From: Leptolyngbya boryana PCC 6306
GTDB taxonomy: Bacteria > Cyanobacteriota > Cyanobacteriia > Leptolyngbyales > Leptolyngbyaceae
Assembly (NCBI RefSeq): GCF_000353285.1
Contig: NZ_KB731327.1
Coordinates: forward strand, 1-45,320
Reading direction: 5' to 3'
DNA length: 45,320 bases
Numbering within the stretch: the first letter of the stretch is position 1; every line of letters begins with the position of its first letter. The notes under the pieces were generated by a model that was given only the letters and a program-made list of their open reading frames with translations, made no database searches and had not been told where the DNA came from. This document shows, piece by piece, positions 1-45,320 of this stretch. The position numbers and the translations under genes were made by a program.

Positions 1-10
1 CAGAACTTAC
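1..10. other. Left telomere tip, half of the hairpin palindrome
   Basis: The window opens with CAGAACTTAC, which is one half of the palindrome GTAAGTTC-W-GAACTTAC seen whole at the right end, with its centre at position 2. A sequence that begins at the centre of a palindrome shared with the other end is what a covalently closed hairpin telomere gives. The exact tip nucleotide cannot be settled from sequence alone. Confidence 0.75.
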
Positions 11-419
11 TTGCATCCCTATGTCAACCCATCCATACCTATAAGATATCCATATCATTCTGCTCCTATATAAATTACTTATGGATAACAACCGCGTATA
101 CATACTCATAGAAATGGCGGGGATCGCTGAAAGCTATACAGGCAGAGGGTTGCAGCGTTTGGTAGTTGCTCACGGCGCGATCGTACCCTTGTCCACACTA
201 TTAGATATCTATATCATTATAAGCTGCTTTATTGAATATTGATATAGATATCCGTATCTTTATTGAGTTTTACTTATGGATAAGTACTCGCGGGGATTGG
301 ATGATAAGCGATTTGTATCAGTCGCTTTTCTTCTCTTGCTATTTGTGCTTAGTGCCTGAAATGCCCGCTATGTATGGGTTTTGATGTATATGCATAATTA
401 GCTTGCATATTCCAATTAC

Positions 420-448
420 TTGCATATTGATACGGATTGCGCTATGAT
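420..448 (+). promoter_or_regulatory. Sigma70-type promoter of the left telomeric genes
   Basis: TTGCAT at 420-425 and TATGAT at 443-448 are separated by 17 bp. The right arm has the same element (TTGCGT, 17 bp, TATGAT), so spacing and -10 box are conserved although the surrounding sequence has drifted. It would drive transcription inward from the telomere. Confidence 0.65.
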
Positions 449-520
449 ATACATATCCAAAGGGCAATCGATCCAATTCCACTCGCATCGATTGCCCACC
501 CCATGAACAGGAGTCTTTTT

Positions 521-727
521 ATGTTATCAGTTTCTTCTACTTCACTCTCAACCGATGAAGCCGCGATCGTTGATCATGCCGCTGAACTCCTCAAACTTGT
601 GAACCTCTCCATGAATGACCAACTCACGATCGAACACGCCATCGGTCTGATCGCGATCAACCGCAATTGCACTCGCCCCCGCGCCGCTCAAATCCTCAAT
701 AAAATCGCGTTCCCTCAAAACTTCTAA
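521..727 (+). CDS. Small telomere-linked protein, left copy (68 aa), unknown function
   Basis: I do not recognise a family. The start at 521 is preceded by AACAGGAG and gives a protein beginning MLSVSSTSLSTDEAAIVDH. The longer frame from 437 has no ribosome binding site and overlaps the promoter. The protein looks all-helical and has no signal peptide or membrane segment. Near-identical genes lie in the right repeat (44580-44783) and, without a start, at 16813-17001, so it is the most copied gene of the element. It is first behind the telomeric promoter and is followed by a conserved hairpin. A structural or regulatory role at the ends is possible but is only an inference from position. Confidence 0.7.
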   Translation: MLSVSSTSLSTDEAAIVDHAAELLKLVNLSMNDQLTIEHAIGLIAINRNCTRPRAAQILNKIAFPQNF

Positions 728-738
728 CGCTGGAATGT

Positions 739-767
739 GCCCCGGTCAAATCAAGGGCGATCGGGGC
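739..767 (+). terminator. Hairpin after the left telomeric small gene
   Basis: GCCCCG at 739-744 pairs with CGGGGC at 762-767, extended by the adjoining GTC/GATC bases. No long T run follows, so attenuation or RNA processing is as likely as termination. The right arm (44540-44567) and the internal copy (17013-17039) keep a hairpin at the same place with different paired bases. Confidence 0.5.
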
Positions 768-805
768 TTCTAACCCAAACATCACAATCTTCTGGAGATT
801 CAATC

Positions 806-1219
806 ATGGCACTCATTCTTAACTTCAACGCCGCTCATCGCGCCAAGCAACTAAAACAGCCGATTCACGCGATCGAGAAACTACAAAACACACCCCAAGG
901 ACATAAACAGGCTGAGGCATTGAATCAACAGATTCGCCAACAGTGGAGAGATCGAGGATCAGCATCCTTGAAACAGCAACAGGGATTGATGGATCAAACT
1001 CGAAGAGTAATTAAAGATTCTCTGGGGGCGGATCATTGGAGTCTCGATTACATTAAGTTCACGACCGCAGAATACACCGAACTCAATAACCTCAAACAGC
1101 ATCGAGTCGCACAACGCAATGAGGCAACTCAACAACTGGATAACCCTAGTGCGATCGTGGCTAAAGCCGCACGACTGCTCGACTTTATGCTTAAATCAGT
1201 GAAGCTGTTCTGCTATTGA
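806..1219 (+). pseudogene. Fused remnant: start of the 133-aa telomeric gene joined to the protelomerase N-terminus
   Basis: The start at 806 has CTGGAG upstream, like the right-arm gene at 44505. Residues 1-23 match the N-terminus of that 133-aa protein (MAxILNFNAAxRAKQLKQPIHAI). From residue 24 the protein matches the protelomerase from about its residue 19 (EELQDTPKGHKQAEALNQ region) to about residue 120, then ends in about 17 unrelated residues. The join falls at a shared GATCG, which suggests deletion at short homology (HIP1-like) sites. The whole catalytic domain (SGRR, KRR, MGH, HYR) is absent, so it cannot resolve telomeres. It is still an open frame of 137 aa and could bind DNA or partner proteins, but decay is the simpler reading. 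murJ starts 5 bp after its stop. Confidence 0.85.
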
Positions 1220-1223
1220 TACT

Positions 1224-3118: not shown

Positions 3119-5296
3119 TTATGCCTCTCGCAATTGCTGGGAACTCAAGTAATAATAGAGACCCCGCTTTGTGATCAGTTGTTCGTGAGTTCCTTGTTCT
3201 AAAATATTGCCTCCTTCAATTACTACAATTCGATCTGCCGTCGCGACAGTCGAGAGTCGATGAGAAATAAAAAGTATAGTGAGATTGTGAAAAAAGTTAT
3301 CTAAATTCTTAAGAACTAGAGCTTCTGTTTCGTGATCTAGAGCTGAAGTTGCCTCATCCAAAATGAGAAGGCGTGGCTTTCTCACCAGAGCACGAGCAAG
3401 CGCAATCCGCTGACGTTGCCCCCCGCTGAGATTTTCTGCCTTCTCCGCGAGCATAGTATCGTACTGTTGAGGTAACTGACTAATAAATTCGTGAGCAGCC
3501 GCACATTTTGCTGCCTCAATAATCTCGTCCAAAGAGGATCCTGAATTTCCATAAGCAATGTTTTCGCGAATGGTGCCCTCAAACAGATCACTGTGCTGGG
3601 TGACCACACCAATCTGGGAGCGAAGAGAAGGTAGCCAAGCCTTAGCAACATCAAAGCCGTCTAGATAAATTTTGCCTAAGGAAGGGGGATAGAAACCAAG
3701 CAGTAGCTTGATTAGGGTCGATTTACCTGAGCCGCTGCGACCGACGAACGCGATTCGCTCTCCCGGCTGCACCTCTAAGCTAATATTTTGCAAGACATTT
3801 CTCTGACCATCAGATTCATAACGAAATGTCAGACGCTCAAATTGGACATGACCTTGTAGATTCGGCAATCTAATGTTTTCTTTTGCGGCTTTGACATTTA
3901 ATTCGGGTTTACTCTCTAACACATCGTTCACCCGCTCAATAGCATTTAAGGTTTCTTGAAAAACGTTCCAAATTCCAACGAGTTGAGTAACCGGAGCAGA
4001 AAAGCTTTTTGCCAATAGGGTAAATGCAACAAGTTCTCCCACGGTCATCTGGCTCTGAAGCACCATGATCGCTCCATAGAACAGCACAGCAGAGTCACTC
4101 AAATGACTGACGACTCCGCTTGCCAAGTTAGAAACGATGCCCAGTTGAATAGTTCGTAGATAGGCGTTGGTAGAACGAAGATATAGATTTTCTGCCTGCC
4201 AACGGGTTGGGTACTCAATCCCCAAAGTTTTGATAGTGCCCAATCCACTCAAGGATTCGATCAGAAAGCTTTGGGCATCTGCTCCCTTCTCAAACACATT
4301 CCGGTAGGAATACTGCATCTGAGGAGTAACCCAGTATAGGTTAACGAGGTGTAAAGCCAAAAAGAAACAGGCAACGAGTGTGAGTGCACTATTTAAATAG
4401 AACATGAGTCCCAGATACAGAATGGCAGAGAACACGTTCAAGAAAGATTGCAAACCAATGTGTGTAAAAAAATTGGTGATTTTTTGGGTTTCCTCGAACC
4501 GACTCGTAACATCTCCAACCTTACGAGCTTCAAAAAAACATAAGGGCAGGGAGAGCAAATGCTTATAAAAATCAGTCAACATCAGCAGATTTGTTCGCAT
4601 GGAAACGAACAAGAGAAGTTGCTGACGGCAAGAACTGATATAGGCATTTAATAGAACAACTGTACAAAGAACAATTAGGCTATACAAAAGCCAGTACGAG
4701 GTTTGATTGATAACAACTTTATCTAAAATAAACTTAGTCAAGATTGGCAAACACAGTCCAAGCAATTGAATCACCAATGATGCTAAAGCAATTTCCAGCA
4801 CTAAGTATTTGTATGAATTTACATAGGGAACAAACTGTTGCAAGGTAGGTTTTGACTCTTCGATCTGCTTAATGACTTCCGTTGGTTTCAAGTAAAGCGT
4901 GTAACGAGTCCAGCCTTTCAGAAAATCCGCTTTGGACAAGTTCAGAAGCCCCTCCCCTGGATCGGCAACTTTCACAGTTCTATCGTTCGCTTTGTAAACG
5001 ACAACCCAGTGATACCCTCGCCAGTTCACGATCGCAGGCAATGGCTTTTGAACCAAATTGTCGTAGGTTTCCAATATTGCTTCTGTTTCATATCCCAAGG
5101 TATTGGCTGCTTTTAGCAGATGGAGCATGGAAGACCCTGACTGTCCAACATGAGCCAACTCTCTTATTCGGTTGAGGCTGACGTGCTTTCCGTAGTAACG
5201 ACAAATTGTTGCTAAACAGGCAGCACCACAGTCCATTGTGCTTTGCTGATAGATCAATGGAAAACAGCCGAAGCGATTCTTAAAGCTGACCTGCAT
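3119..5296 (-). CDS. C39 peptidase-containing ABC exporter (PCAT)
   Basis: 725 aa with three domains. An N-terminal C39 cysteine peptidase (about 10-140) has the catalytic Cys23 in QQSTMDCGAACLA, His96 in YHWVVV and Asp112 in ADPGEG. A six-helix membrane domain follows (about 165-450). The ABC ATPase has Walker A GRSGSGKST at 519-527, signature LSGGQ at 623-627, Walker B LLILDE at 643-648 and the H-loop His679. PCATs cut the leader of a double-glycine precursor and export the peptide in one step. Such a precursor lies at 11009-11254 on the same strand. It is the last gene of the cluster, has GGAG before the start, and all catalytic residues are intact. It acts in the inner membrane, probably with the HlyD-like protein upstream. 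Confidence 0.95.
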   Translation of the reverse strand: MQVSFKNRFGCFPLIYQQSTMDCGAACLATICRYYGKHVSLNRIRELAHVGQSGSSMLHLLKAANTLGYETEAILETYDNLVQKPLPAIVNWRGYHWVVVYKANDRTVKVADPGEGLLNLSKADFLKGWTRYTLYLKPTEVIKQIEESKPTLQQFVPYVNSYKYLVLEIALASLVIQLLGLCLPILTKFILDKVVINQTSYWLLYSLIVLCTVVLLNAYISSCRQQLLLFVSMRTNLLMLTDFYKHLLSLPLCFFEARKVGDVTSRFEETQKITNFFTHIGLQSFLNVFSAILYLGLMFYLNSALTLVACFFLALHLVNLYWVTPQMQYSYRNVFEKGADAQSFLIESLSGLGTIKTLGIEYPTRWQAENLYLRSTNAYLRTIQLGIVSNLASGVVSHLSDSAVLFYGAIMVLQSQMTVGELVAFTLLAKSFSAPVTQLVGIWNVFQETLNAIERVNDVLESKPELNVKAAKENIRLPNLQGHVQFERLTFRYESDGQRNVLQNISLEVQPGERIAFVGRSGSGKSTLIKLLLGFYPPSLGKIYLDGFDVAKAWLPSLRSQIGVVTQHSDLFEGTIRENIAYGNSGSSLDEIIEAAKCAAAHEFISQLPQQYDTMLAEKAENLSGGQRQRIALARALVRKPRLLILDEATSALDHETEALVLKNLDNFFHNLTILFISHRLSTVATADRIVVIEGGNILEQGTHEQLITKRGLYYYLSSQQLREA

Positions 5297-5433
5297 TGCA
5301 ACGTTCTCCGACCTCGTATTTTTCTAAGTTCTAGATGACAACTTATCTGGGAAACTCTGTTTTTAGCTACGATTCTTCCAGAAGCTTGCTATGCGATACA
5401 AAGGCAGCTTGCTAGGCAATCACGGGTGTTCTT

Positions 5434-5982: not shown

Positions 5983-5988
5983 CTTAAT

Positions 5989-10728: not shown

Positions 10729-10816
10729 AGAATTGCCCCATAGTATGTAAACAAATTTGCGATGAGAACCAACCCCCTAGTTTGTCAGGAGAATGATCAA
10801 ACTATGCTACTAGTAG

Positions 10817-10970
10817 CTAGATCTGCCAGGTAATGAAAAATCACTGTAATGCTCTTATGGATAGACTATGCTGATTTGTCGTGAAATCACACATATTGGC
10901 TAGCTTGTAAGAGTATTCCAGATTCTTTCTGGTTACCTGGCAACCTCAACTTCTTATTTTCCAGATCTAG
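10817..10970. repeat. Two nested inverted repeats between precursor and isomerase genes
   Basis: CTAGATCT (10817-10824) is mirrored by AGATCTAG (10963-10970), and TGCCAGGTAA (10824-10833) by TTACCTGGCA (10933-10942). The arms are exact and nested. The roughly 100 bp inside hold no gene. It could be a small palindromic mobile remnant or an RNA fold setting how much of the downstream operon is transcribed. Confidence 0.55.
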
Positions 10971-10982
10971 GAGAATAAAATG

Positions 10983-11006
10983 AGAGATTTTTAGAAGTCA
11001 ATCTCT
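10983..11006 (-). terminator. Weak terminator or attenuator after the peptide precursor
   Basis: On the minus strand AGAGATT pairs with AATCTCT across a 10-nt loop, followed by CATTTTATT. The position directly after the precursor stop is typical for partial terminators that make precursor transcripts outnumber those of the export genes. Confidence 0.5.
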
Positions 11007-11008
11007 AT

Positions 11009-11254: not shown

Positions 11255-11295
11255 AACTGGTTCTCCAATTTCAAGATGTTGTTAATCGTTACTAA

Positions 11296-13065: not shown

Positions 13066-13079
13066 TAATTATAAGCTCT

Positions 13080-13101: not shown

Positions 13102-13177
13102 GAACTGTCAACTGTAGGAAGTTAAAGGAAGTAAAGCTAAAGGTTAAAGACAAATTAAAAGCTAGGCAAAGGTAGCC

Positions 13178-17380: not shown

Positions 17381-20300
17381 TTAATCACCCGTGTAGTCAG
17401 ACACTCGAATCACCTCCGATGGCTTGATCGATTTGCTGCCAGTTCCAGGAACGTGAACTGTAATACTATTGGGCTTTTCAGATAAAACTCTAACCAACGT
17501 TTCACCACCTGCTTGCAGCCGAGCGTAAACCCACTTGTTATGACTCGCAGGCTTCACAGGCTCTTGGGCAGTTTCAAGCTCTTGAACGGGTTCTGCTGCC
17601 GTCTCTGGAGTCTCAAATTGCTGCCAGCATTCGTAGAACCGCACTTGCTGTTCATCATCGTCAACTTGAGTCGTAAAAGCATCGAGAATTTGCTGCTGTT
17701 GACCCTGAGAGCAACGCTCAAAGCGATCGTAGAACTGTTGGAAGGCTTCAACCGAATTAATTAAAGCCATCCGGTCTACGGCTCGTTGAACTACGTCTTG
17801 AGGCAGCAGAGTAGGATTGTCCACCCTGTCCGCTTTGTCCAAATTTGCTGAATCGGCTGAAACTGGCTCTACGCCTACCTGTCCACTCTGTCCAGCCTGT
17901 CCGTCCAGAGTCTTGACCCTTAAAGAGTCTTCCTCAACTTGTAGACTGGCATCATTTGATTTCAAATCTACTTCAAAACCTTTACCCTGAACAGTTGATC
18001 CACCCTGGACACCCGCACTGTATAAAGGTTTCAGGCTGTCCACCCCTTGATTTTCAGAATTTTGAGGCGGGACACCCTGGACACCCGCATTGTGTAAGGA
18101 TTCTGGCGTTTCAGAGAGTGAAATATCAGGTGGATTCCAGTAAGCCTCAAACTCCTCAAGCCCGCCCTCGACACACATAGCTTTCAAGCAAGTCCATTCT
18201 GGATTTTGGGGAAATTCCGCATTACCCCCACCCGAAGACACAAACACTCTTGGCACAGGAGTAATGCCCCTCCAATGAGCAGGGATGCGGCTGCGTTCGC
18301 CCTCAACCATCGGACTCCAGCCGCGATCGACGTAGTTTCGAGACAACACGGTTCTCAAGTGTGAAATAAATTTGGTTTGTCCCAGATGGGTATAGCCGTG
18401 TTGCTGGCAATAAGCCCGATACCAGTCATAGAGTTGGGCATGAGAAACAGTCTCGGTCGGATCAGCACTTGGGCGCAGGCACAAATCGACAAAGCTCTTA
18501 GTAGAATCGCCATATAGTGCTGCATCCAGAACGAGATTTTTGGCGCGATCGCTGGTGGGAGGCGAAAGCAGGATGGCATCACGCTCCGACCGGGGCATTG
18601 CCAGCGCCCACGCGATCACTTCTGCCTTGACCGCTTGCAATTTCGCGCCAAGATTGGGATCGGCAATCACTAGCCGCTCAATCACAGCAATGGGATCAAC
18701 TCTACGACCCCAGCCGTCAGCAGCATTTTCGATTTGTAGATGTGAAACAGACCCAATCCAAAAGCGAATGTTCCAGGTTTTTTGATAAGCGACAGGGCTA
18801 AACAGCGCCCGCCCGGTCATGGCTCCATTGTCTACCAGTTCATAAAACGCCTGAAGCCCTTGCACAAAACCGCCAACGTCAGCAAAGCCGAAAATGCGCT
18901 TGCCAGTCAGATGTTGATGCCTACCTTCTGGTGTAGATAGGTCAGAGAATGCAGTTGAACTACCAGAACACTCTTCCCCAAGCAGGCTATTCCAGAACCG
19001 CCCCAAAGTGCCTTTACCGCCGCCCGATTTCCCAATCAGGTGAGGAACCCGCCCATAGGGGGCGGTTGGATCGAGAAAAGCTGATGTGTGGGCGCGAATT
19101 TTTGCAAGTTGATCCGCACCAAACGCTTCAAGCACAAACTTGAGGAAGACTTCAGGGCATTCGCTACTGGGCTGGTAATTGTGCGGAATCACGGTCGTCA
19201 GCAGAAATGCCTTGTCGTGAGGCATTGTTTGACCAGTCCTGAGATCAACGGTCACATCGTTAAATGCCAACAAATGCGCGTTGGTGGTCAGCGTTTCTCG
19301 CTCAAGTCTGGAGCGGCAATACTTGAAAGCAGATTCCTTGTGCTTGTTATCTTCGTAGGGACGAGTGATATACGGTTGTCCGTATCGGGGGATATTGATT
19401 TTGAATGCCTTTGCCCCATAGTCGGTGATCAGCTTGTTGATCGCGGTATCGGTCTTGTGTTCCCAGTAGCGTCCATTCCAGCAATAAAAGGCAGAGTTGA
19501 TCACAATCCAATCGCCTGTTTCCCCACCAAATAGAACTCGGTAGGCGGAACCGTCAAACTGCTGACGGGTGCAGCAGTATTGAAAATTCAGCCCCATGTC
19601 TGCACAAACCTGTCTAAACGGGTTGTCTGGGTTGCCATCATCCCCGCCGCCATCGCCATCATCGCCGCCCCCGCCGTTGAAAGGAGGCTCGTTACCGCCG
19701 CCCTGGTGCTGCCGCAGTTCGACTTGACGATGGATCTCAGCTTCCAGCCGCTTGATGAATTCTTCCCCGCCGATCGACGCGACCATATCAACCGCATCGC
19801 TCTTTGGCGCTAGGTCAGAGTCGATATTTGTGGGCACAATCGCTAAAAACGGTACACCTGCACGATCGCAGGCTTGCTGAAGCAGTTCTGCTTTCTTGTA
19901 CCCGGCTGTATCGTGATCAGGATGGTAGACTAGCCCCACATTTTCAGCCTTGAGCAGTGCGATCAAGTCGTTAATGGCTGCTTCACCCCAGTCTGAGCCT
20001 TGCAGGGTGATCGCCGCATAGCCTTGTTGCCAGTAGATCTCGGCTGCTGGCTCTCCCTCAACTCCGACTAGGAAAGTTGCAGTACACGATCGCACAGCCG
20101 CGATCGCGCTTTCCCATCGATAGGGCATCCAGGGCGCTAGACCTTTTGAGCAAACAGGCTCACCCATAACGGCTTCACGGGTTCCAGTCTGCTCACTATT
20201 TTCCCAGACCGGCACTTCTTCCCCTTCCTCTGCTGAATGCCACTGACGATAGGTCTTGTCGTAGCCTTTGGGCTTCGATTCGTCAGCCCATTGAACCCGT

Positions 20301-20785
20301 TCAACCCACTGAGAGGAAGAATATTCAAACCGCCAAACTAGCGTTTCCCCATGCTGTTTGCTGCGTTTCCGCTGTGGCTTGGGGCTATCTGTAACAGGTT
20401 CAGCTAGTCGAGCCAGCACCACGCCCTCAGATGGCAAGGGAGCGGGTTTAGGAGGTTTCTTTGAGGGCGTGATAGTGCCGCGAACCCATTCCCCAGCAAC
20501 GGGAGCAAGGCTGTAGCTTCCCTTTCGCACTGTTTCCTTCTGATTGTCTACAACTTCTGACCAGGGACGCAAGGCTTCCTTGATCTCGCGTTTGTGCTGT
20601 TCGGTTTTGTCGTTCCAGCAGCCAAAATTGGGAACGTTATGGCTGTTCAGCTTTTTGCTGATTGAAAAGTTGTCCTCTCCGCAGGCAGGGCAGATGAATT
20701 TTCCCTTCTTTCCTTTTCCTGTAGCGGGCTGTAGATGATCGATGAAATGCCGAATGTCAAACGGCGGTAGCTGTTTCAGATACAT
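17381..20785 (-). CDS. Plasmid replication primase-helicase (zinc finger, TOPRIM, SF3-type helicase)
   Basis: 1134 aa from ATG 20785 (a TTG at 20866 would add 27 unlikely residues). An N-terminal zinc finger (CPACG...GCW, about 32-56) is followed by a TOPRIM domain (about 240-320) with GVEGEP and the acidic DHD pair. Then come a Gly/Asp-rich linker (about 362-388) and a phage/plasmid D5-type SF3 helicase with Walker A GKSGGGKGT at 585-593. The C-terminal 300 residues are linker-like with an RVSDY end. It would open and prime the replication origin. Phage N15 RepA, which drives another hairpin-ended linear plasmid, is also a large primase-helicase, so this is the probable replication protein here. 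The origin could lie within or beside the gene, but I cannot point to it. Confidence 0.88.
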   Translation of the reverse strand: MYLKQLPPFDIRHFIDHLQPATGKGKKGKFICPACGEDNFSISKKLNSHNVPNFGCWNDKTEQHKREIKEALRPWSEVVDNQKETVRKGSYSLAPVAGEWVRGTITPSKKPPKPAPLPSEGVVLARLAEPVTDSPKPQRKRSKQHGETLVWRFEYSSSQWVERVQWADESKPKGYDKTYRQWHSAEEGEEVPVWENSEQTGTREAVMGEPVCSKGLAPWMPYRWESAIAAVRSCTATFLVGVEGEPAAEIYWQQGYAAITLQGSDWGEAAINDLIALLKAENVGLVYHPDHDTAGYKKAELLQQACDRAGVPFLAIVPTNIDSDLAPKSDAVDMVASIGGEEFIKRLEAEIHRQVELRQHQGGGNEPPFNGGGGDDGDGGGDDGNPDNPFRQVCADMGLNFQYCCTRQQFDGSAYRVLFGGETGDWIVINSAFYCWNGRYWEHKTDTAINKLITDYGAKAFKINIPRYGQPYITRPYEDNKHKESAFKYCRSRLERETLTTNAHLLAFNDVTVDLRTGQTMPHDKAFLLTTVIPHNYQPSSECPEVFLKFVLEAFGADQLAKIRAHTSAFLDPTAPYGRVPHLIGKSGGGKGTLGRFWNSLLGEECSGSSTAFSDLSTPEGRHQHLTGKRIFGFADVGGFVQGLQAFYELVDNGAMTGRALFSPVAYQKTWNIRFWIGSVSHLQIENAADGWGRRVDPIAVIERLVIADPNLGAKLQAVKAEVIAWALAMPRSERDAILLSPPTSDRAKNLVLDAALYGDSTKSFVDLCLRPSADPTETVSHAQLYDWYRAYCQQHGYTHLGQTKFISHLRTVLSRNYVDRGWSPMVEGERSRIPAHWRGITPVPRVFVSSGGGNAEFPQNPEWTCLKAMCVEGGLEEFEAYWNPPDISLSETPESLHNAGVQGVPPQNSENQGVDSLKPLYSAGVQGGSTVQGKGFEVDLKSNDASLQVEEDSLRVKTLDGQAGQSGQVGVEPVSADSANLDKADRVDNPTLLPQDVVQRAVDRMALINSVEAFQQFYDRFERCSQGQQQQILDAFTTQVDDDEQQVRFYECWQQFETPETAAEPVQELETAQEPVKPASHNKWVYARLQAGGETLVRVLSEKPNSITVHVPGTGSKSIKPSEVIRVSDYTGD

Positions 20786-21024
20786 GATTTTGGATGCTCT
20801 AGGTTTCGTTCTATGAGTGAACAGAAACCAGGTGCGCCAAACCTCACAAGCCGCGTAGAGCCTCAAAACCTAGTCTAGATAGGGGTTCTGAGAAATTTGA
20901 TACCAAGTGGCTACTTTTGCTATCATTGCACTACGGGGTTGCAGCATTCAAACTGCAACTGGGAAAAGGTCTGGGAAAGCCGTTCAAACTTTACGACCTG
21001 ATTTCAAATTGAATCAATTTGCTG

Positions 21025-28784: not shown

Positions 28785-29549
28785 ATGCAAACGCTAACCT
28801 GTACCTCGCTATCGGGAGGGCAAGGAAAAACGACCACTTCTATCTTTCTTGGACGGACATTAGTTCAAGCTGGATACCGAGTTCTAATGATCGATGCCGA
28901 TCCTCAATCCAGTTTGACCTTCTATTTGGGGCAGGAAGTTCAACCGAATCAGCCGACCTTGCTAGAGGTTCTCAAAAAGCTAGTGCCAGTTGAGGATGGA
29001 ATTTATGAAGTACAAGACAATCTTTGGCTGATGCCTTCAGATGATGCCTTAGATAATGCTCAAGATTATCTTTCTGGAAGCGGAATGGGAGCGATCGTAC
29101 TCGGAAAACGACTGAAGGAAGTTTCAGATTTGTTTCAGTTCTGCATCATTGATGCACCACCTCAGCGATCGCAGATTTGTTTAACAACGGTTGGAGCCGC
29201 AGATTATGTTCTAATTCCGGCTGAAGCGTCCTCGAAAGGAGTTAATTCGCTCATTCGGACGCTTGATCTGATTCAAGAGCTTAAAGATATGGACGCTTTT
29301 TCGGGTTCAGTTCTGGGAGTTCTACCGTTTCGCGATCGCTGGACGGGACGAACTCAGGCGAATCAAAGCAAAAAAAGTATTGAAACGATGCGCGAGATTG
29401 CGGGAGAAATGCCAATTCTTCCCTCGATTCTGGAGTCTGAGCAGTTCAAAAAAGCGATCGATCAAGGCAAAATGCTCAACGAATTAGGTCATCCGAATCT
29501 TGAGCATCCATTTCAGCAAATCGTTCAAAAGTTGGTAGGTGGAAAATGA
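28785..29549 (+). CDS. parA: ParA-family partition ATPase
   Basis: 254 aa with a deviant Walker A SGGQGKTTT at the N-terminus, Walker A' region LMIDADPQSSLTFYLG and switch region IIDAPPQ. The usual signature lysine (KGGxGKT) is Ser here, as I recall for other cyanobacterial plasmid ParA proteins. It drives segregation of plasmid copies together with a DNA-binding partner. The next gene overlaps its stop by 4 bp (ATGA), which is typical of a par operon. AAAGGTG lies before the start. A full ParA fold with no extra N-terminal HTH makes it the small type, so repression, if any, must come from the partner. Confidence 0.9.
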   Translation: MQTLTCTSLSGGQGKTTTSIFLGRTLVQAGYRVLMIDADPQSSLTFYLGQEVQPNQPTLLEVLKKLVPVEDGIYEVQDNLWLMPSDDALDNAQDYLSGSGMGAIVLGKRLKEVSDLFQFCIIDAPPQRSQICLTTVGAADYVLIPAEASSKGVNSLIRTLDLIQELKDMDAFSGSVLGVLPFRDRWTGRTQANQSKKSIETMREIAGEMPILPSILESEQFKKAIDQGKMLNELGHPNLEHPFQQIVQKLVGGK

Positions 29550-35747: not shown

Positions 35748-37067
35748 TTACAACTCAATTTCTTGAGACTTTTCAGGCAGCCCTTTCGGTAACGGCGGTT
35801 CCACCCTCTCTGGTTGAGTGGTTGTCTGTTGATTTTGAGAGCCTTTCTGCTGCCGTTTTTTCTCCCGCGCCGCTTGATGTCGCATCCGCTCCTCATGTTG
35901 CTGAATTACCGATCGCTGCCACGCTTGCAACCGCTCAAGATCAGCTTGAGTTAATCCGTTGCTTTGATACACATCGTCGAATCGCTCCAGCACCGTCTCA
36001 CCCATGCGGTGAAGTTCTGGGTGCCCAGATGGGGCGAGTTGAATTTGATACTCTTCAAACGTCGCAGTTTTGAGTTTAGGCAATCCCGCCCGTGAATGTT
36101 CCCAAATGTCTTCGACCAAACAGATTGCATCCCATAATTGAACTTGTTGCTGAACCTCTTGCCCCGTCTGTTTCTGCTCTAGGTCAGGCTGACGTGACTG
36201 CTCCGGTTGCTCAATCTGAATTAATAAGGCTTGGCATTCTTGAGCATTCATCGCATTGAGTTGCCGCAGCATCGCATCATCCCGCTCCGGCTGGTAATCT
36301 ACCCCTGCGTACTCGTATAGCCCGTTGAAGGAGAAGCGATCGCCCAGTTGCCGCCCCTTAAAGTATTTGCCTTCCGCCCCAAAACTAACGCCCCTACCAT
36401 CATCGAATTCGTGAAACTTCATCGTGTAGCCTTGAGCTTTGATTCGCACCATTAATAGTGGCATCGATGGCTGATCCGCGACGGCTTCATCTAGGGCATT
36501 TCGGAGCGTGTCTTTCGTCAGCGTTTGCCCCTGTTCTTTTAGTTTCACCTCAGCGATCGACGTATTGACCCGCTCCCCTTTTTCTTTCGGAGGGCAATAC
36601 TGCAAATCCCGCTTCAACTCGATCTCTCGTTCAACGTCTTTCAGCTTGACTCGCTCATAGGCATCATCGACCCAAGTTCCATCCAGACGCACCGTTGACG
36701 AGAGAACATGAATGTGATGAACGTCGCGCTTATCAATTTTCTCAAAATGCTCAACCGCAAAAAATTGGCAATTTTGCCCGTGATTTCGCAGCTCTAGCAA
36801 ATCATCCACAATACCAATTTTGGTTTGAAGGTCTGGGGTTTCTCCCGGTGGAAAGCTGATCTTGTACTGCACATAAGTTCGGTCAACGTTGCCATTCTGA
36901 TCGGATGAAAACCTTAGCTCTTCCGTCAACTCCTGCTCAGTCTCTCCGAACATATTGGTGTGAAAGATTGGATTTTCGGCTTCCCGCCCCTTTTCGCGCT
37001 TATCTGTTCGCAGCAGATAGCCCATTACTGACCCTGGTTGACGACCGCGATCGACGATGATTCTCAT
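35748..37067 (-). CDS. Relaxase / mobilisation nuclease (MobA-like)
   Basis: 439 aa. The N-terminal domain has the relaxase His cluster HHIHV at 117-121 (H117, H118, H120) and a candidate catalytic Tyr17 (SVMGYLL), with AVEHFEKIDKRDVHHIH resembling the motif III of Mob-type relaxases. The C-terminal 180 residues are Gln/Glu-rich and helical, as in the linker of MobA proteins. It nicks one strand at an oriT and leads it into a recipient cell. It overlaps the RHH gene by 4 bp (ATGA). Relaxases work on circular or internal sites. Finding one on a hairpin-ended linear plasmid raises how transfer is completed. Confidence 0.88.
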   Translation of the reverse strand: MRIIVDRGRQPGSVMGYLLRTDKREKGREAENPIFHTNMFGETEQELTEELRFSSDQNGNVDRTYVQYKISFPPGETPDLQTKIGIVDDLLELRNHGQNCQFFAVEHFEKIDKRDVHHIHVLSSTVRLDGTWVDDAYERVKLKDVEREIELKRDLQYCPPKEKGERVNTSIAEVKLKEQGQTLTKDTLRNALDEAVADQPSMPLLMVRIKAQGYTMKFHEFDDGRGVSFGAEGKYFKGRQLGDRFSFNGLYEYAGVDYQPERDDAMLRQLNAMNAQECQALLIQIEQPEQSRQPDLEQKQTGQEVQQQVQLWDAICLVEDIWEHSRAGLPKLKTATFEEYQIQLAPSGHPELHRMGETVLERFDDVYQSNGLTQADLERLQAWQRSVIQQHEERMRHQAAREKKRQQKGSQNQQTTTQPERVEPPLPKGLPEKSQEIEL

Positions 37068-37390
37068 GAGTTACGCTCCACTTGTCGCGCCAATCGATAT
37101 AAAACAACTTCCCGCCCGACTTCCCGACAGACTGCGATTGCGTCCCGCAACAGCGAAGCTCCCGCTTCTTGCTGAAACTCAGAGGCAGGCATCGCCTTTA
37201 GATTCTGATTCAAGTTCATGAGTTGAGTGTAGATGTCTGCTAGGGTTGTAGAGTCCTCAGCATCTCTAACTCGCCCGTCGTCTAGCCCCTTCTTAAGTAG
37301 GTATGAGTTTACGCTTAACTTGGCTGATTCTGCCTTAATCTTAATTCGCTCTCTTTCCGCTTCAGTACACCGAACTAAAACTGAAACCAT
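37064..37390 (-). CDS. MobC-like ribbon-helix-helix protein
   Basis: 108 aa from ATG 37390, which has AGGTGATAGC before it; the longer frame to 37483 lacks a site. The N-terminus (MVSVLVRCTEAERERIKIKA, then SVNSYLLKKGLDDGR) is a ribbon-helix-helix DNA-binding fold as in MobC/MbeC relaxosome proteins. It would load the relaxase on oriT. The four-base overlap with the relaxase start links translation of the two. Confidence 0.85.
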   Translation of the reverse strand: MVSVLVRCTEAERERIKIKAESAKLSVNSYLLKKGLDDGRVRDAEDSTTLADIYTQLMNLNQNLKAMPASEFQQEAGASLLRDAIAVCREVGREVVLYRLARQVERNS

Positions 37391-37520
37391 GCTATCACCT
37401 GCCACAACTTGATAAAAATATAGCAAGGCAAAACACAGATTGCGTAATGAAAAATGTAAGAAGATATAGATACTAATGCTCAAACATAATTGAGTTATCT
37501 AGATAAGAACAGGAGAAAAA
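37391..37520. promoter_or_regulatory. Divergent promoter region and candidate oriT
   Basis: 130 bp between the mob genes and the divergent DNA-binding-like gene. It holds a perfect 12-bp palindrome TTATCTAGATAA (37495-37506), which precedes AGGAG and the start at 37521, so it is a likely operator. An oriT is expected in this gap. I do not see a clear match to a known nic consensus. Confidence 0.5.
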
Positions 37521-40293: not shown

Positions 40294-41771
40294 GTGTTTT
40301 GTAAGGAAAGTGAGTCATTGTGGGAGCAACCGCCTAAGCTGAAAGAGATGCCCGACGGAGGAATAGCCTCTATGAGCGCCCGCAAGCAACGCAGCACGGC
40401 TGGAGATAAAACGATTTGCCTGCCAATAGCTGATGATGTGAACTACAACCAACTGGTTGAGGATACGAAAGGGTTCCGCGCCTACCTGGATGGCGTGATT
40501 GCCACGCATCCGGAGTTGTTTCCAGCAGGGATTGAAGAGGGCTATTGCTTTCATGGGTTTGTGGAGTCGGGCAAACTGCACCTGAGTACACGCCGGATTC
40601 GGTTGAAGTGCAATGGGCAAGCGTATCAGATTCGACCGGACACGGTGATGCCCTACATGATCGGCAAGACCGAGGAGGTCGAGAAAGGACTCTACTTACG
40701 CCGCTACGGGGTGCCGTATGAGGGCATTGCCCATGTGTTGGGGCATTCGGCGATGTACTGGTTTAACGCGACGCAAGCGTTAGGACGCCCCTCGATGGTG
40801 GGCAGTACGGTGAAAGACCCCGAACGGCTCCCCCCCATCTGAGTGCCGACGAAAAGCATAGCTGGTGGCGGGGAAACCGGATTTACATCGCCGTAACCGC
40901 CGCGCTGGGCTGTTTCTTCGGGGTCGGCATTGCCGAGCGTGCGGATGCGGAAGCGTTAAGCGAAGCCTACCGAGGTTTTCAGCAAGAGACACAGCAACTC
41001 AAGCCGGACTATCAACCGCAAAGCGTCAATACCGATGGCTGGGAAGGCACGCAACTTGCCTGGAAGAGGTTGTTTCCTGAGATTACGCTGGTGCTGTGTT
41101 TCCTCCATACGGTCTTGGGCATTCAACAGCGCTGTCGGCGACTGAGGGAAGTCTGCCACACGGTCACCGACAAACTCTGGCACCTCTACTACAGTTCGAC
41201 GTTGCGGCAGTTTGCGCAACGCTTGCGACGCCTGCACGAGTGGGCAAGCAATCCCAAAATCGACTTACCGGATGCCGTGCGCCAGAAGTTGCTGGGCTTG
41301 AAGGCGAAAGCACCGCAGTTCACCGTTGCCTTTGACTTGCCCGATGCGGCTCGCACGAGCAATCAAGTAGACCGATTGATCAACTATCAAGACCGACTCC
41401 TCTATGCCATGCAGTACTTTCACGGCACCCTCGCCTCTGCTAATCAAGCCCTGAGAGCGATGGCATTGTTGTGGAACTTCCATCCTTACTGTTACAAGGT
41501 GCGCTCCGTGCCACCCTATGTACGATCGCCGTTTGAAGCCTTGAATGGGTTTCGCTATCATGACCACTGGTTGCGCAATCTTTTGATCGCCACGTTGTGG
41601 AACTTCCATCCTTACTGTTACAAGGTGCGCTCCGTGCCACCCTATGTACGATCGCCGTTTGAAGCCTTGAATGGGTTTCGCTATCATGACCACTGGTTGC
41701 GCAATCTTTTGATCGCCACTTCACTGAATGGGCGAGGCACCGCTAAACCAGTCAAACACAAACAAATTTAG
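40294..41771 (+). pseudogene. IS transposase with one frameshift at a run of seven C
   Basis: The first part (to 40842) reads RRYGVPYEGIAHVLGH, ending PERLPPI at a TGA just after CTCCCCCCC. One base away the frame goes on as PHLSADEKHSWWRGNRIYIA through to TDGWEGTQLAWKRLFPEITL and the end at 41771, so the two are one gene. One more, or two fewer, C would restore the full protein. The DDE residues probably include the Asp in VNTDGW. The frameshift may be sequencing error, slippage regulation or inactivation. A perfect 126-bp tandem duplication at 41468-41719 also extends it in frame by 42 aa. Confidence 0.75.
41468..41719. repeat. Perfect 126-bp tandem duplication within the transposase
   Basis: Two identical 126-bp copies (41468-41593, 41594-41719), each coding LWNFHPYCYKVRSVPPYVRS and the 22 residues after it, in frame. 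Exact identity suggests a recent event or a mis-assembly. Confidence 0.95.
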
Positions 41772-42213: not shown

Positions 42214-44022
42214 TTACGCACCTGCAAGTTGAATTACGTCTTCAATTTTCGCCTTCCCACGATGCCCATAATTATGTTTGTCCGGGTCGATCTGATGCTT
42301 GTAATGGTGCTGTTGGATCTCAGCTTGCCGTGTTCCCTCGATCGTTTCTCCTTTGCGGTTTCGTCCACCGATCGTGGCCACGATCGCTTCTTGGGATTTA
42401 GCAAATGCTTTGAGTGTATTAATCCCAATTGCCCATTTTTCTGTATGTTTGCGATCTGGCGCATCGTTGTACGCGAAGATGGCATTGATCGCTTGATTAA
42501 TGCGTTCGGTTGTTTCCGCCGCTCCTGCTCGTTGTCTCGGTTGGCTTGCTTCCTTTTGGACTGCCTTGCTTGTTTCAGTTGGTTGACTGGGTGTAATTGT
42601 CTCGTGCGTTTCGGCTGAAGTTGCTTTCGGTTTTGCGGCTCTCACAGGTGTAGCAGGAGGATTAACTTGAGTCTGCAACAGTGCCTTGTTCACCTCGACC
42701 AGTTGCGCGATCGCGGCAATCAGTTGATCAAATTTCTCCGCTTGTGGAATTGCGAGCGTTGAAACTGGAGTGACTTCGGAAGTATCCAATTCCGACTGAT
42801 CCAATTCCGACTGAGCTTCTACTGTTTGAGGTTGCATCGGGATATCCTCTTCTACGGTTGATTGAAGCTGACCCAAAGTGTTCTGCTGTGATTCAAACCA
42901 GTTCAGAAAAGCGTGGAAGCGTTCTTGCTGTTGTGTCCCTGCATCTCTAAACTGCTCTAGAATTTGGTCAAATCGCTGCTTGTCTTCTTGCCAGATGCGA
43001 TAAGAGGAGCGCGTTTTGCGCTCTTTTGGTGTGGGTTGGTTCTCTGGCATTCCAGCTATAAAAGTATCCAATGGTTGAATTCCTCCATGCCCCAATTTGA
43101 TGCCCTTGCGCTTGCCACGATGGAGCGCGATCAATTCGTCTTCAATTTCGTACAGGCGGTAGTGTCGTTCTGAGCTAAAGGTTTCGAGCCGTTGCTGAAG
43201 TTTGCGACCGTCGCTTTTCTCGCTCTGGGTCAGCGTCTCGAAATGCCCCATAATGTGCGCCTTAAACAAAAGGTCATCGACGTGCTTGGGGCAATACCAA
43301 AAGGTTGCAATGCAGCAAAAGACCGACCGCCACAAGTGGGTATAGAGTTTGTCTTTTCCACCTGGAGCGGGAACGAGATCCGCAAAGTGACGATCGCTCA
43401 TTTCTGCTACCTTGTTCTCATTCGCATCGGCTGGGGTAATACGTCGAAGTTTGGCAACACCTTCTAAAAACCGTTTTGCTGTGGTGAGCAGCGGAATAAC
43501 AAAAATGAGTGGAACTGTCTCACCCCGCCGCTTTAAAGCCCCTCTAAAGGACACGCTCCACTGATCCCTCGCTTCAAACTCAGCGGTGTACAGCACTTCC
43601 CCAAGTCGCCGTCCTGATAGCAAGGACAAGGCAGCCGCGACCGTCGCCCAATCCGGTGATTCTAGGAGTGAAACGGCTCTTGCTACAATCGCATCTGGAT
43701 CATGCAGATAGCACTGCTGCAATTGCCGATCTCTGGCTCTACCCTGCTTTTGGCGATTGAGTTCAAAGTTTTCTTCTCGACTGAACCCGATGTAGTTGAG
43801 ACTCCAATGATTCTCGCCTAAAGAGTCCTTAATCACACGGCGCGTCTGATCCATTAGTCCTTGTTGCTGGCTCAAGGTTTTAGAACCTCGATCGCTCCAC
43901 TGTTGGCGAATGCGTTGATTCAGTGCTTCAGCCTGTTTGTGTCCCTTTGGTGTGTCTTGTAACTCCTCGATCTTGGGAATGTAGTCGAGTGCGATCGCGT
44001 CTTGAAGCCATTTGCGGGTCAT
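42214..44022 (-). CDS. Protelomerase (telomere resolvase), TelN/TelK-type
   Basis: 602 aa. The core aligns with phage N15 TelN in four places: ALSLLSGRRLGEVLYTAEFE (TelN ALAAVSGRRMIEIMFQGEFA), WSVSFRGALKRR (YTVNFSGQAKKR), LYTHLWRSVF (VYKDSRAIYA) and AHIMGH...HYRLYE (EILGH...HYKQF). Catalytic residues by this alignment are Arg139 (or Arg138), Lys164, Arg232, His260 and Tyr288. The spacing from Arg139 to Lys164 is 25, as between R275 and K300 of TelN. Between His260 and Tyr288 there are about 19 extra residues. The N-terminal 120 and C-terminal 300 residues are unlike TelN. The end carries RINQAINAIFAYNDAPDRKH and HNYGHRGKAKIEDVIQLAGA, probably extra DNA-binding. The enzyme cuts the duplicated telomere palindrome and rejoins each strand as a hairpin. 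AGGAG precedes the start. Confidence 0.93.
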   Translation of the reverse strand: MTRKWLQDAIALDYIPKIEELQDTPKGHKQAEALNQRIRQQWSDRGSKTLSQQQGLMDQTRRVIKDSLGENHWSLNYIGFSREENFELNRQKQGRARDRQLQQCYLHDPDAIVARAVSLLESPDWATVAAALSLLSGRRLGEVLYTAEFEARDQWSVSFRGALKRRGETVPLIFVIPLLTTAKRFLEGVAKLRRITPADANENKVAEMSDRHFADLVPAPGGKDKLYTHLWRSVFCCIATFWYCPKHVDDLLFKAHIMGHFETLTQSEKSDGRKLQQRLETFSSERHYRLYEIEDELIALHRGKRKGIKLGHGGIQPLDTFIAGMPENQPTPKERKTRSSYRIWQEDKQRFDQILEQFRDAGTQQQERFHAFLNWFESQQNTLGQLQSTVEEDIPMQPQTVEAQSELDQSELDTSEVTPVSTLAIPQAEKFDQLIAAIAQLVEVNKALLQTQVNPPATPVRAAKPKATSAETHETITPSQPTETSKAVQKEASQPRQRAGAAETTERINQAINAIFAYNDAPDRKHTEKWAIGINTLKAFAKSQEAIVATIGGRNRKGETIEGTRQAEIQQHHYKHQIDPDKHNYGHRGKAKIEDVIQLAGA

Positions 44023-44103
44023 TGTGGTTCTCCTAATTGAAAAGAATAAGGGGACAGTTTAATGGCACTGTCCAAGCTCAGTTATGCAATCGGACAGCGA
44101 AAA

Positions 44104-44505
44104 CTAATCCAGAAGTGTTTCGGTAGAGACTACGCCTGCATCGACGAGTTTGCTGTAGGCGGGCATGGTCACGAGTGCTTTGAAGAAGCCAGAATTTCCG
44201 AACGGTGATTTATGCCAGTAGTGGTCTTTGTTGCCAAATTCAGCGTGTTCAATTCCTGGTACTTTCGGACGAATCCGCAATGTTTTAAGTAGCGTTCTCA
44301 CAGTTGTGTCATCAGCCTCAGCCCAACGAATGCTGAAGCAGTTATAGACATAGCTACCCAAAATAGGCTTAGTCGGATTGCTGCTTTCACCCATTTCGGG
44401 GTAGAAGCAATGCGGACGATCATCGATAGGGAACACGATCGCGTGAATCGGCTGTTTCAGTTGTTTCGCACGTTGAGCGGCATTGAAGTTGAGAATTTGA
44501 GCCAT
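44104..44505 (-). CDS. Telomere-linked protein (133 aa), unknown function
   Basis: ATG 44505 follows CTCTGGAAATTC; the longer frame from 44574 crosses the hairpin. It opens MAQILNFNAAQRAKQLKQPI, which is also the start of the left-arm fused remnant. The rest (FPIDDRPHCFYPEMGESSNP to VVSTETLLD) is mixed alpha/beta with aromatic clusters and no recognised family. It precedes the protelomerase by 81 bp on the same strand. An accessory factor for telomere processing is possible from context. Confidence 0.65.
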   Translation of the reverse strand: MAQILNFNAAQRAKQLKQPIHAIVFPIDDRPHCFYPEMGESSNPTKPILGSYVYNCFSIRWAEADDTTVRTLLKTLRIRPKVPGIEHAEFGNKDHYWHKSPFGNSGFFKALVTMPAYSKLVDAGVVSTETLLD

Positions 44506-44539
44506 GATGAATTTCCAGAGGTTTATGAATTTCGTCTGA

Positions 44540-44567
44540 GTGCCCCAACTTACGAGGGTTAGGGCAC
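44540..44567 (-). terminator. Conserved hairpin between the telomeric small genes, right arm
   Basis: GTGCCC (44540-44545) pairs with GGGCAC (44562-44567). Left and internal copies keep a stem in the same place with other bases, which is compensatory change and so a sign that the fold matters. Confidence 0.5.
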
Positions 44568-44579
44568 ATTCCATCGTTA

Positions 44580-44783
44580 TTAGTTATCTGGGAACGCCCG
44601 TTTATTCAGCAATTGAGCGGCTCTGTGGCGAGTGCAATTGCGAGTGATAGCGATGAGACCGATCGCGTGTTCGATAGTGAGTTGGTCATTCATAGAGAGG
44701 TGCGTGAGTTTGAGCAAATCAGCGGCATGATCAACGATCGCGGCTTCATCGGTTGAGAGTGAAGTAGAAGAAACTGATACCAT
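44580..44783 (-). CDS. Small telomere-linked protein, right copy (67 aa)
   Basis: ATG 44783 has ACAGGAG upstream, in the same context as the left copy at 521. It reads MVSVSSTSLSTDEAAIVDHA to RAFPDN, differing from the left copy at a modest number of residues. Function unknown. It is the first gene behind the right promoter and precedes the telomere protein and the protelomerase, which likely share its transcript. Confidence 0.75.
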   Translation of the reverse strand: MVSVSSTSLSTDEAAIVDHAADLLKLTHLSMNDQLTIEHAIGLIAITRNCTRHRAAQLLNKRAFPDN

Positions 44784-44855
44784 AAAAAGACTCCTGTTCA
44801 TGGGGTGGGCAATCGATGCGAGTGGAATTGGATCGATTGCCCTTTGGATATACAT

Positions 44856-44884
44856 ATCATAGCGCAGTCCATATCAATACGCAA
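44856..44884 (-). promoter_or_regulatory. Promoter of the protelomerase operon, right arm
   Basis: On the minus strand TTGCGT and TATGAT are separated by 17 bp, the same arrangement as at 420-448. It faces inward, toward the protelomerase gene. Confidence 0.65.
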
Positions 44885-45303
44885 GTAATTAGATATAGAC
44901 ACTCTAAATACGCATACACATAAAATTCATACGCAGTAAACATTACAGCCATCTAACCGAAACTAGCGAGAAAGAAGACGACTGATACAAATCACTTATC
45001 ATCTCACTTATCATCCAATTCCTGTCCCCAGCCATTCATAAGTAAAACTCAATAAAAGTATGAATATCTATATCAACATTCAATAAATCGACTGTAAATG
45101 ATATGGATGCTTAATAGGTATGGATAGGAGACAGATACCATGCGAGTACACACGAGTCTCTGAAACCCGCCCTCTGTATAGCTTTCATCGATTCCCGTAT
45201 TTTTGTGAGTATGTATACGCGGTTGTTATCCATAAGTAATTTATATAGGATCAGAATGATACGGATATCTTGTAGGTATGGATGAGTCGACATAGGGATG
45301 CGA

Positions 45304-45320
45304 GTAAGTTCTGAACTTAC
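45304..45320. other. Right telomere tip palindrome
   Basis: GTAAGTTCTGAACTTAC is two complementary 8-nt arms around a single T at 45312. The arms continue outward as GCGA/TYGC on comparison with the left end. The right end has thus been read 8 nt beyond its centre into the complementary strand, as hairpin read-through would give. Confidence 0.8.

What the first reader, a model, noticed from the sequence alone, without database searches (positions are those of the whole stretch)
1..45320. Cyanobacterial linear plasmid with hairpin telomeres and its own protelomerase
Both ends are an inverted repeat ending in a shared palindrome, the right end reads past the centre of it, and a TelN-type protelomerase gene lies inside the right repeat. 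A primase-helicase replication gene and a ParA are also present, as in phage N15-type linear plasmids. Linear cyanobacterial replicons are known (the 430-kb one of Cyanothece ATCC 51142). I am not aware of one shown to use a protelomerase.
Basis: partly seen in the sequence, partly recalled or inferred. Interest (0 to 1): 0.97.

Follow-up and report, generated by a model that had tools for sequence, protein, structure and literature searches.

The report
Hairpin-ended linear plasmid of a cyanobacterium
This is very probably a straight, hairpin-capped plasmid of the cyanobacterium Leptolyngbya boryana that carries its own end-sealing enzyme, and its ends are built around a single central base where the well-studied hairpin ends have an even centre, which hints at an unusual version of the enzyme.

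Summary
The window is a whole 45,320-bp contig of a Leptolyngbya boryana genome, identical over 44,369 bp to plasmid pLBY of strain IAM M-101 and longer at both ends. Its ends form an inverted repeat of about 880 bp, and the right end reads through a palindrome. The 602-aa gene at 42214-44022 is a protelomerase (PF16684, E=1.9e-27) with the expected catalytic residues. The same genome has a second replicon (C2+C5, about 553.7 kb) with related telomeres and its own protelomerase. Of 386 sampled cyanobacterial genomes, 15 (this one included) hold such genes. The new point is the centre: here and in three related genomes the read-through palindromes are odd (core TC-W-GA), whereas N15, phiKO2 and three other cyanobacterial contigs are even. 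A 2013 paper says all known protelomerases cut 6 bp apart; an odd palindrome predicts an odd stagger. A relative lies in a perfect 6.2-kb palindrome in a 4.68-Mb single-contig genome, suggesting a linear main chromosome. Hairpin plasmids were already inferred in Nostoc, so this is a new variant of a known kind. No reads or assays were available, and some related plasmids are recorded as circular.

The parts
1..115 (.). Left telomere: outermost part of the inverted repeat; the tip reads C-A-GAACTTAC, centre base at position 2
   Evidence: 93% complementary to 45199-45313; 55 of 90 positions identical in the four telomeres of this genome, against a maximum of 8 in 20,000 random draws
1..875 (+). 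Left terminal inverted repeat
   Evidence: 79.8% identity over 890 columns to 44436-45313 reversed
737..1219 (+). ORF holding a truncated remnant of a protelomerase gene (863-1183, residues 15-121, 64% identity)
42214..44022 (-). Protelomerase (telomere resolvase), 602 aa
   Evidence: PF16684 1.9e-27; profile hits to three solved protelomerases; pLBY's identical gene is named 'protelomerase family protein' WP_017292343
43219..43698 (-). Catalytic domain match (residues 109-268) with Arg138/139, Lys164, His229, Arg232, His260; the predicted nucleophile Tyr288 lies just after it
43159..43161 (-). Codon of the predicted nucleophile Tyr288
   Evidence: invariant in 11 of 11 aligned proteins, the window's own included; aligned with the TelN/TelK 'HYKQF' tyrosine
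44436..45313 (.). Right terminal inverted repeat
45304..45320 (.). Read-through telomere tip, odd palindrome GTAAGTTC-T-GAACTTAC
17381..20866 (-). D5_N / P4-family primase-helicase, probable replication protein (1161 aa)
   Evidence: D5_N 3.6e-17; TIGR01613 4.6e-13, below its cut-off
28785..29549 (+). ParA partition ATPase
   Evidence: (AAA_31 5.1e-33)
35748..37067 (-). MobA/VirD2-like relaxase
   Evidence: PF03432 9.9e-14
37064..37483 (-). NikA-like mobilisation accessory protein
   Evidence: PF21983 4.8e-12

Best explanation
The window is a complete linear plasmid whose two strands are joined by a hairpin at each end. [quoted passage not shown] The plasmid's own tyrosine protelomerase binds the conserved block about 30-90 bp from the tip on each side, cuts both strands around the centre and folds each strand back to seal two new hairpins. 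Because the palindrome is symmetric about one A/T base pair, the two cuts must be an odd number of bases apart (5 or 7 most likely), and each junction should yield one daughter hairpin with A and one with T at its tip. A ParA segregates the plasmid and a relaxase may mobilise it. Shown here: repeats, palindrome, protein family, catalytic residues, clade pattern. Inferred: hairpin closure, cutting, stagger, A/T segregation, binding block, mobilisation.
For: Inverted ends and palindrome; PF16684 and conserved catalytic set; pLBY, 100% identical over 44,369 bp, recorded linear, stops 425 and 526 bp short of the window's ends; second replicon in the same genome: C2 and C5 left ends 84.5% identical over 472 bp, matched at 100% over the 3 kb compared by the two ends of NIES-2135 plasmid2, recorded linear, which starts 30 and 15 bases further in; independent read-through of the same GTTC-A-GAAC centre with 23-base arms at the end of G392:C166; odd read-throughs also in Chondrocystis p2 (both ends, 94-base arms), p3 right end (46) and G027 (3,079); even centres in G078:C53, G078:C59 and G395:C54, and in N15 and phiKO2 as controls with the same script; on a 39-protein tree the 6 odd-labelled and 5 even-labelled rows need one change, 0 of 500 shuffles as low.
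Against: No read, gel or enzyme data. The window's own read-through is only 8 bases. IU 594 p2, with the same ends as NIES-2135 plasmid2, is recorded as circular. Leptolyngbya NIES-2104 carries a 45%-identical protelomerase on a plasmid reported as circular, and no telomere-like sequence was found in the 28 kb examined. NIES-3755 p1 is recorded circular and only its left end looks telomeric. pLBX's left end and Chondrocystis p3's left end show no telomere. The branch between odd and even rows has modest support (93/87), the tree program warned of long branches and uneven composition, C2's label rests on half-ends, G411 has a 3-base asymmetric centre, and G278:C104 (AAAA-T-TTTT, outside the clade) was left unlabelled as ambiguous; counting it as odd would break the single-change pattern.
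Confidence: 0.9

Rival explanations
1. Linear plasmid capped by covalently bound terminal proteins, as in Streptomyces, with inverted repeats but open 5' ends.
For: Terminal inverted repeats occur in both types (PMC4443254, passages seen).
Against: Contig ends read past the centre of the palindrome in this genome and in relatives, which open ends would not give; a protelomerase is present; none of the 46 annotated genes of pLBY is named a terminal-protein gene, although many are hypothetical and no dedicated tpg/tap search was made.
Confidence: 0.03
2. Circular plasmid with a large inverted repeat, broken by the assembler at the repeat.
For: Related plasmids of NIES-2104, NIES-3755 and IU 594 are recorded as circular.
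Against: Four ends in this genome start or end about the same C-W-GAAC centre and share 55 of 90 bases; pLBY stops within 0.53 kb of both window ends and NIES-2135 plasmid2 within 30 bases of the C2 and C5 ends; no exact overlap of the window's end with its start, 5-499 bases tested.
Confidence: 0.04
3. Hairpin plasmid as proposed, but the odd centre is an assembly or sequencing artefact and the true palindrome is even with the usual 6-bp stagger.
For: The window shows only 8 bases of read-through; single-base errors at hairpin tips are conceivable; five tips of two other cyanobacterial genomes are even.
Against: Odd centres with the same TC-W-GA core appear in four genomes, with arms of 8, 23, 46, 94 and 3,079 bases, and their enzymes fall in one protein clade (the G392:C166 tip was not assigned to a protein); a random artefact would not follow the protein tree.
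Confidence: 0.15
4. The plasmid is linear but resolved in trans by the protelomerase of the 553.7-kb replicon, the window's own enzyme being dispensable.
For: Telomeres of the two replicons are related; the left copy of the gene is truncated.
Against: The right copy is an intact 602-aa frame with all catalytic residues.
Confidence: 0.15

Closest known systems
Phage N15 / phiKO2 linear plasmid-prophages with TelN / TelK
   Same: Own protelomerase beside its target palindrome, large replication protein, ParA/SopA-type gene; linear hairpin prophage form (recalled; also stated in PMC4443254 passages)
   Different: The window's protein did not match them by tblastn even at E 10, only by multiple alignment; mobilisation genes and no gene named as phage structural; palindrome odd here, even in N15 and phiKO2
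Agrobacterium TelA
   Same: Best-scoring solved relative of the clade profile, 3e-21, over a stretch that ends at the catalytic His and so does not include the Tyr
   Different: The single protein scores 20.6 bits on the NCBIfam TelA model, cut-off 800; TelA cuts 6 bp apart at an even site (PMC3558466, section 'DNA Sequence Requirements' read)
Linear hairpin plasmids pNPM8-10 of Nostoc sp. N6 (PMC5987646, passages seen)
   Same: Cyanobacterial linear plasmids with inverted repeats and hairpins inferred from palindromic reads
   Different: End sequence AAATTAACRGAC; a telomere of that kind on G078:C53 is even-centred and goes with a protelomerase outside the window's clade; the words resolvase and protelomerase do not occur in the paper's main text
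L. boryana pLBY / pLBX and NIES-2135 plasmid2
   Same: The same replicons in other records; RefSeq already labels 'protelomerase family protein'
   Different: pLBY lacks both tips, so its telomere centres are not visible there

Membership tests
Telomere resolvase / protelomerase (PF16684) | Score above the curated cut-off of the ResT-TelK catalytic domain | tested here: met
   96.4 bits, cut-off 27
Telomere resolvase / protelomerase (PF16684) | Catalytic Arg, Lys, Lys/His, Arg, His, Tyr (which TelK residues are catalytic is recalled) | tested here: met
   invariant in 11 of 11 aligned proteins; the position of TelK Lys380 is His here, as in part of the family
Telomere resolvase / protelomerase (PF16684) | Turns a palindromic junction into two hairpins | not testable with these tools
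   needs purified enzyme
Telomere resolvase / protelomerase (PF16684) | Cuts 6 bp apart (stated for all known enzymes in PMC3558466) | tested here: inconclusive
   the palindrome is odd, which predicts an odd stagger; the cuts themselves are not mapped
Hairpin-telomere linear replicon | Mirror-image ends with read-through of the tip | tested here: met
   (8 bases at the right end only; 23 bases in G392:C166)
Hairpin-telomere linear replicon | Covalently closed ends | not testable with these tools
   needs exonuclease / snap-back test or raw reads
N15-type linear prophage | Phage structural genes on the replicon | tested here: not met
   none named among the 46 annotated genes of pLBY, nor above cut-off in the 30 window ORFs scanned by Pfam
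N15-type linear prophage | Close relatives among phages | tested here: inconclusive
   no match, but the same searches miss N15 and phiKO2 themselves, so only close relatives are excluded

The most novel reading that the evidence does not exclude
Cyanobacteria hold a clade of protelomerases that resolve telomeres symmetric about a single base pair, so that they cut 5 or 7 bases apart and leave a tip base that segregates A/T between daughters; besides plasmids of 45-550 kb, members of this clade cap whole cyanobacterial main chromosomes (G027, 4.68 Mb, and probably G429, 5.46 Mb), which are linear although held as single contigs in which this is not evident.
Probability: 0.6. Interest if true: 0.9.

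Novelty: new variant of a known kind. Interest (0 to 1): 0.76.

Why it matters
Hairpin telomeres are known in detail from a few phages, Borrelia and Agrobacterium; a 2013 structural paper states that all known protelomerases cut 6 bp apart and suggests that this spacing reflects a shared mechanism (PMC3558466). An odd-centred clade would show that the refolding step tolerates a different geometry, and can be tested simply with purified enzyme. It also makes cyanobacteria, whose linear replicons have lacked an explanation, a place where several hairpin systems coexist (two linear replicons with two protelomerases in one genome), and raises the prospect of linear main chromosomes in photosynthetic bacteria.

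Tried and rejected
Phage origin: tblastn of the 602-aa protein against 50,697 phage records at E 0.01 and at E 10 gave no match, but missed N15 and phiKO2, which are held there; two IMG/VR scans gave no relative. Rfam: nothing in the window at the gathering score. GC skew of the window shows no clean origin. Exact end-to-start overlaps that would close C1, C2, C3, C4 or C5 as circles were not found. The Nostoc N6 plasmids and the Anabaena incision element are not in the collections, so Nostoc's tips were judged from the paper's passages and from G078:C53. Structure prediction of the protein was tried five times and the queue was full each time; no fold comparison was made. A telomere at the left end of G429 was not found; G027's centre pattern occurs at one place in G027 and nowhere in G401, G411, G419, G429. 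The idea that every protelomerase-bearing plasmid is linear was dropped.

Rows left out of the parity count: G409:C72, two mirror-image copies with a run of N between them; a 22-base inverted repeat with a 3-base centre inside G401:C2 at about 9674; palindromes inside the window at 13038-13065 and 25408-25427, a 10-base even palindrome in NIES-2104's plasmid and internal GTTCWGAAC matches without arms, all of them inside contigs and not at ends. Half-ends without read-through (C4 left, C2, C5, G429 right) are not in the count. The G406 protein stops at an internal TGA; only its open piece went into the tree.
Full report
What it is. The window is the whole of contig C4 of a 7.26-Mb, five-contig genome. 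It matches plasmid pLBY of Leptolyngbya boryana IAM M-101 at 100% over all 44,369 bp of that record, reversed, and is longer by 425 bp at the left and 526 bp at the right. The genome is therefore L. boryana; strain PCC 6306 is an inference from its five scaffolds (PMC4675709, passages seen).

The ends. Positions 1-875 and 44436-45313 form an inverted repeat, 79.8% identical over 890 columns, 93% in the outermost 115 bp. The right end runs through the centre of a palindrome: GTAAGTTC-T-GAACTTAC, arms of 8 bases about one central base. The left end begins one base beyond the same centre. Two other contigs of the genome, C2 (521,445 bp) and C5 (27,054 bp), begin with C-T-GAACATAC and C-A-GAACATATAC and are 84.5% identical over 472 bp. 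NIES-2135 plasmid2 (553,673 bp, recorded linear) has C2's end on its left, from C2 base 31, and C5's end on its right, from C5 base 16, at 100% identity over the 3 kb compared, so C2 and C5 most likely hold the two ends of one linear replicon. Over 90 ungapped bases the four telomeres agree at 55 positions; 20,000 random draws from the same replicons never passed 8. The motif TCCATATCTAT (up to 2 mismatches) occurs 23 times in the window, 13 of them within 500 bp of one end or the other.

The enzyme. ORF 42214-44022 (-) gives 602 aa. Pfam PF16684 matches at 1.9e-27, 96.4 bits against a cut-off of 27. A profile of 11 relatives finds the solved protelomerases 4e0z (3e-21; TelA, recalled), 2v6e (7e-16; TelK, recalled) and ResT 8vs5 (5.6e-5). 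Arg138/139, Lys164, His229, Arg232, His260 and Tyr288 are invariant in all 11, the window included, and line up with TelN and TelK; which TelK residues are catalytic is recalled. A truncated copy of the gene lies at the left end (863-1183, residues 15-121, 64%), and a 42-residue remnant in contig C1. C2 carries a second intact protelomerase, 44% identical, at 148205-149938. I infer that the terminal repeat once spanned the gene at both ends, as it still does in G027, and that the left copy decayed.

Relatives. Of 386 cyanobacterial genomes sampled, 15 hit PF16684, 14 above cut-off, this genome among them; of 58 relatives searched with the protein, 16 hit, again with this genome, some only in part; of 72,556 plasmid records, 14 hit, all of them from cyanobacteria (records near the window's genome may be left out). 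Several contigs are hairpin-ended by their sequence: Chondrocystis NIES-4102 p2 (both ends read through 94 bases, first 3 kb of the ends identical) and p3 (46 bases at the right end; the left end shows none), G078:C53 (22,857 bp, both ends 53 bases) and G078:C59 (18,151 bp, both ends 19 bases). Chondrocystis p5 has a 1,104-bp inverted repeat, 99.9%, but no read-through. G078:C53's AAATTAACGGAC fits the conserved end AAATTAACRGAC of the linear plasmids of Nostoc sp. N6, whose hairpins were inferred from palindromic reads (PMC5987646, passages seen); the main text does not hold the words resolvase or protelomerase. The PF16684 protein of G078:C53 is thus a lead to the Nostoc enzyme.

Odd and even centres. 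One script gave the centre for 15 read-through tips chosen as palindromes at or beside contig ends or between mirror-image protelomerase genes, plus two phage controls among the 15. Odd with one central base: window right, G392:C166, Chondrocystis p2 left and right, p3 right, G027: 6 of 15, all with the core TC-W-GA. Odd length with a 3-base asymmetric centre (TTC): G411:C11, 1 of 15. Even: G395:C54, G078:C53 left and right, G078:C59 left and right, N15, phiKO2: 7 of 15. Ambiguous: G278:C104 (one T inside an A/T run), 1 of 15. G392 is another genome of the same genus and repeats the window's GTTC-A-GAAC with 23-base arms. On a 39-protein tree, with 6 rows labelled odd (window, C2, G027, G411, Chondrocystis p2 and p3), 5 even (G395:C54, G078:C53, G078:C59, TelN, TelK) and 28 unlabelled (G278 among them), one change separates the labels, in all of 200 bootstrap trees, and none of 500 shuffles does as well; the separating branch has 93/87 support, and the program warned of long branches and uneven composition. 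C2's label rests on its half-ends. Counting G278 as odd would need another change.

Why the parity matters. PMC3558466 (one section read) states that all known protelomerases cut 6 bp apart. For a dimer bound symmetrically about one base pair the stagger has to be odd. That step is geometry, not measurement. It also predicts that the two daughter hairpins from one junction differ at the tip base, which fits the mix seen here (three tips of this genome read T outwards, one reads A), but four tips prove nothing.

Possible linear main chromosomes. In G027, a single 4,681,111-bp contig, the protelomerase (876 aa) lies in both arms of a perfect palindrome with 3,079-base arms about one A at 2113190, between a malic-enzyme-like gene on one side and TonB/ExbB/ExbD-like genes on the other (my reading of the translations; not searched). 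GC skew in 10-20 kb samples is positive in 8 of 10 samples before the palindrome and negative in 10 of 12 after it; the samples right beside it have the other sign. So the palindrome lies near the skew flip, where the ends of a linear chromosome with a central origin would be. A live protelomerase should resolve such a palindrome, so a circle would probably be an assembly join (inference). In G429, a single 5,458,034-bp contig, a 60%-identical protelomerase lies 8 kb from the right end, and that end, read inwards, starts GATAATACTTTTATTG, the half-site beside the centre in G027; the left end shows no telomere, a second partial copy of the terminal DNA lies 5 kb inside the right end, and five skew samples (+0.024, -0.069, -0.013, +0.026, +0.078) fit a central origin but are few.

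Against. There are no reads or biochemistry. IU 594 p2 and NIES-3755 p1 are recorded as circular, and the NIES-2104 plasmid is reported as circular, though they carry the gene; in NIES-2104 no telomere was found in the 28 kb examined. A 'linear' label in the plasmid table is weak evidence, since pLBX and Gloeothece Cy782202 bear it with ends that do not look telomeric. The window's own read-through is short.

Other content of the plasmid: D5-type primase-helicase, ParA with a neighbour that has a weak ribbon-helix-helix match, relaxase with NikA-like partner, a peptidase-ABC/HlyD/MacB export cluster, MurJ, and a PLD-SNF2 helicase that resembles defence proteins below their curated cut-offs. 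Pfam was run on 30 of the 80 listed ORFs.

Literature. Searches: protelomerase + cyanobacteria (2 papers; the second, PMC6895999, not opened), telomere resolvase + cyanobacteri (7), linear plasmid + cyanobacteri + hairpin (16), linear chromosome + cyanobacteri + telomer (41, of which 25 listed), Leptolyngbya boryana + linear plasmid (1), Leptolyngbya boryana + pLBY (0), hairpin telomere + cyanobacteri (5), any two of protelomerase and five genus names (1,008, of which 15 listed, none of the 15 with 'protelomerase'), Cyanothece + linear chromosome + plasmid (9), Leptolyngbya boryana + dg5 + plasmids (10, of which 8 listed). In these listings and in the passages I saw there was no study of a cyanobacterial protelomerase. 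PMC4674748 on the linear chromosome of Cyanothece ATCC 51142 has no mention of telomeres or hairpins. Subscription papers are mostly missing from that library.

Noticed in passing
L061 4112-10270 (G027:C1 around 2113190): Perfect odd palindrome with 3,079-base arms and a protelomerase in each arm, in the middle of a single-contig 4.68-Mb genome: likely a linear main chromosome closed by the assembler.
   Followed up: partly
L189, right end of G429:C1 (5,458,034 bp): The contig ends at a telomere half-site (GATAATACTT... read inwards), 8 kb from a protelomerase: a second candidate linear main chromosome.
   Followed up: partly
L086 and L117 (G078:C53): 22.9-kb contig with a Nostoc N6-like telomere at both ends and a PF16684 gene: a lead to the enzyme of the hairpin plasmids reported in Nostoc.
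   Followed up: partly
L071 both ends, L072 left end: Tandem repeats of about 21-24 bp (GTGTACAGGGAACTTGTATAGG-like) at the ends of 12-14-kb linear plasmids of Gloeothece and Stanieria that carry a telomere resolvase (seen by eye).
   Followed up: no
L083, L084, L085, L087, L071, L072, L073: Two neighbouring ORFs both match the protelomerase profile in small plasmids or contigs, as if the enzyme were split or doubled.
   Followed up: no
control genome Synechococcus elongatus: Of 14 named control genomes, Synechococcus elongatus has a PF16684 match over the cut-off.
   Followed up: no
window 41468-41719: Perfect tandem duplication of 126 bp near the protelomerase gene.
   Followed up: no
window 16835-17013: Third copy (84%) of a small-ORF segment of the terminal repeat, next to the primase gene.
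   Followed up: no
window 3119-15758: Peptidase-containing ABC transporters, HlyD, MacB, rotamase and MauE genes: looks like a peptide export cluster; the small ORF at 11009-11254 has no Pfam match.
   Followed up: partly
window 30029-32050: PLD plus SNF2 helicase protein resembling candidate anti-phage defence proteins.
   Followed up: partly
NZ_CP092421 (IU 594 p2), L052 and L053: Recorded as circular although its two ends equal those of NIES-2135 plasmid2, recorded linear: probable topology error in one of them.
   Followed up: partly
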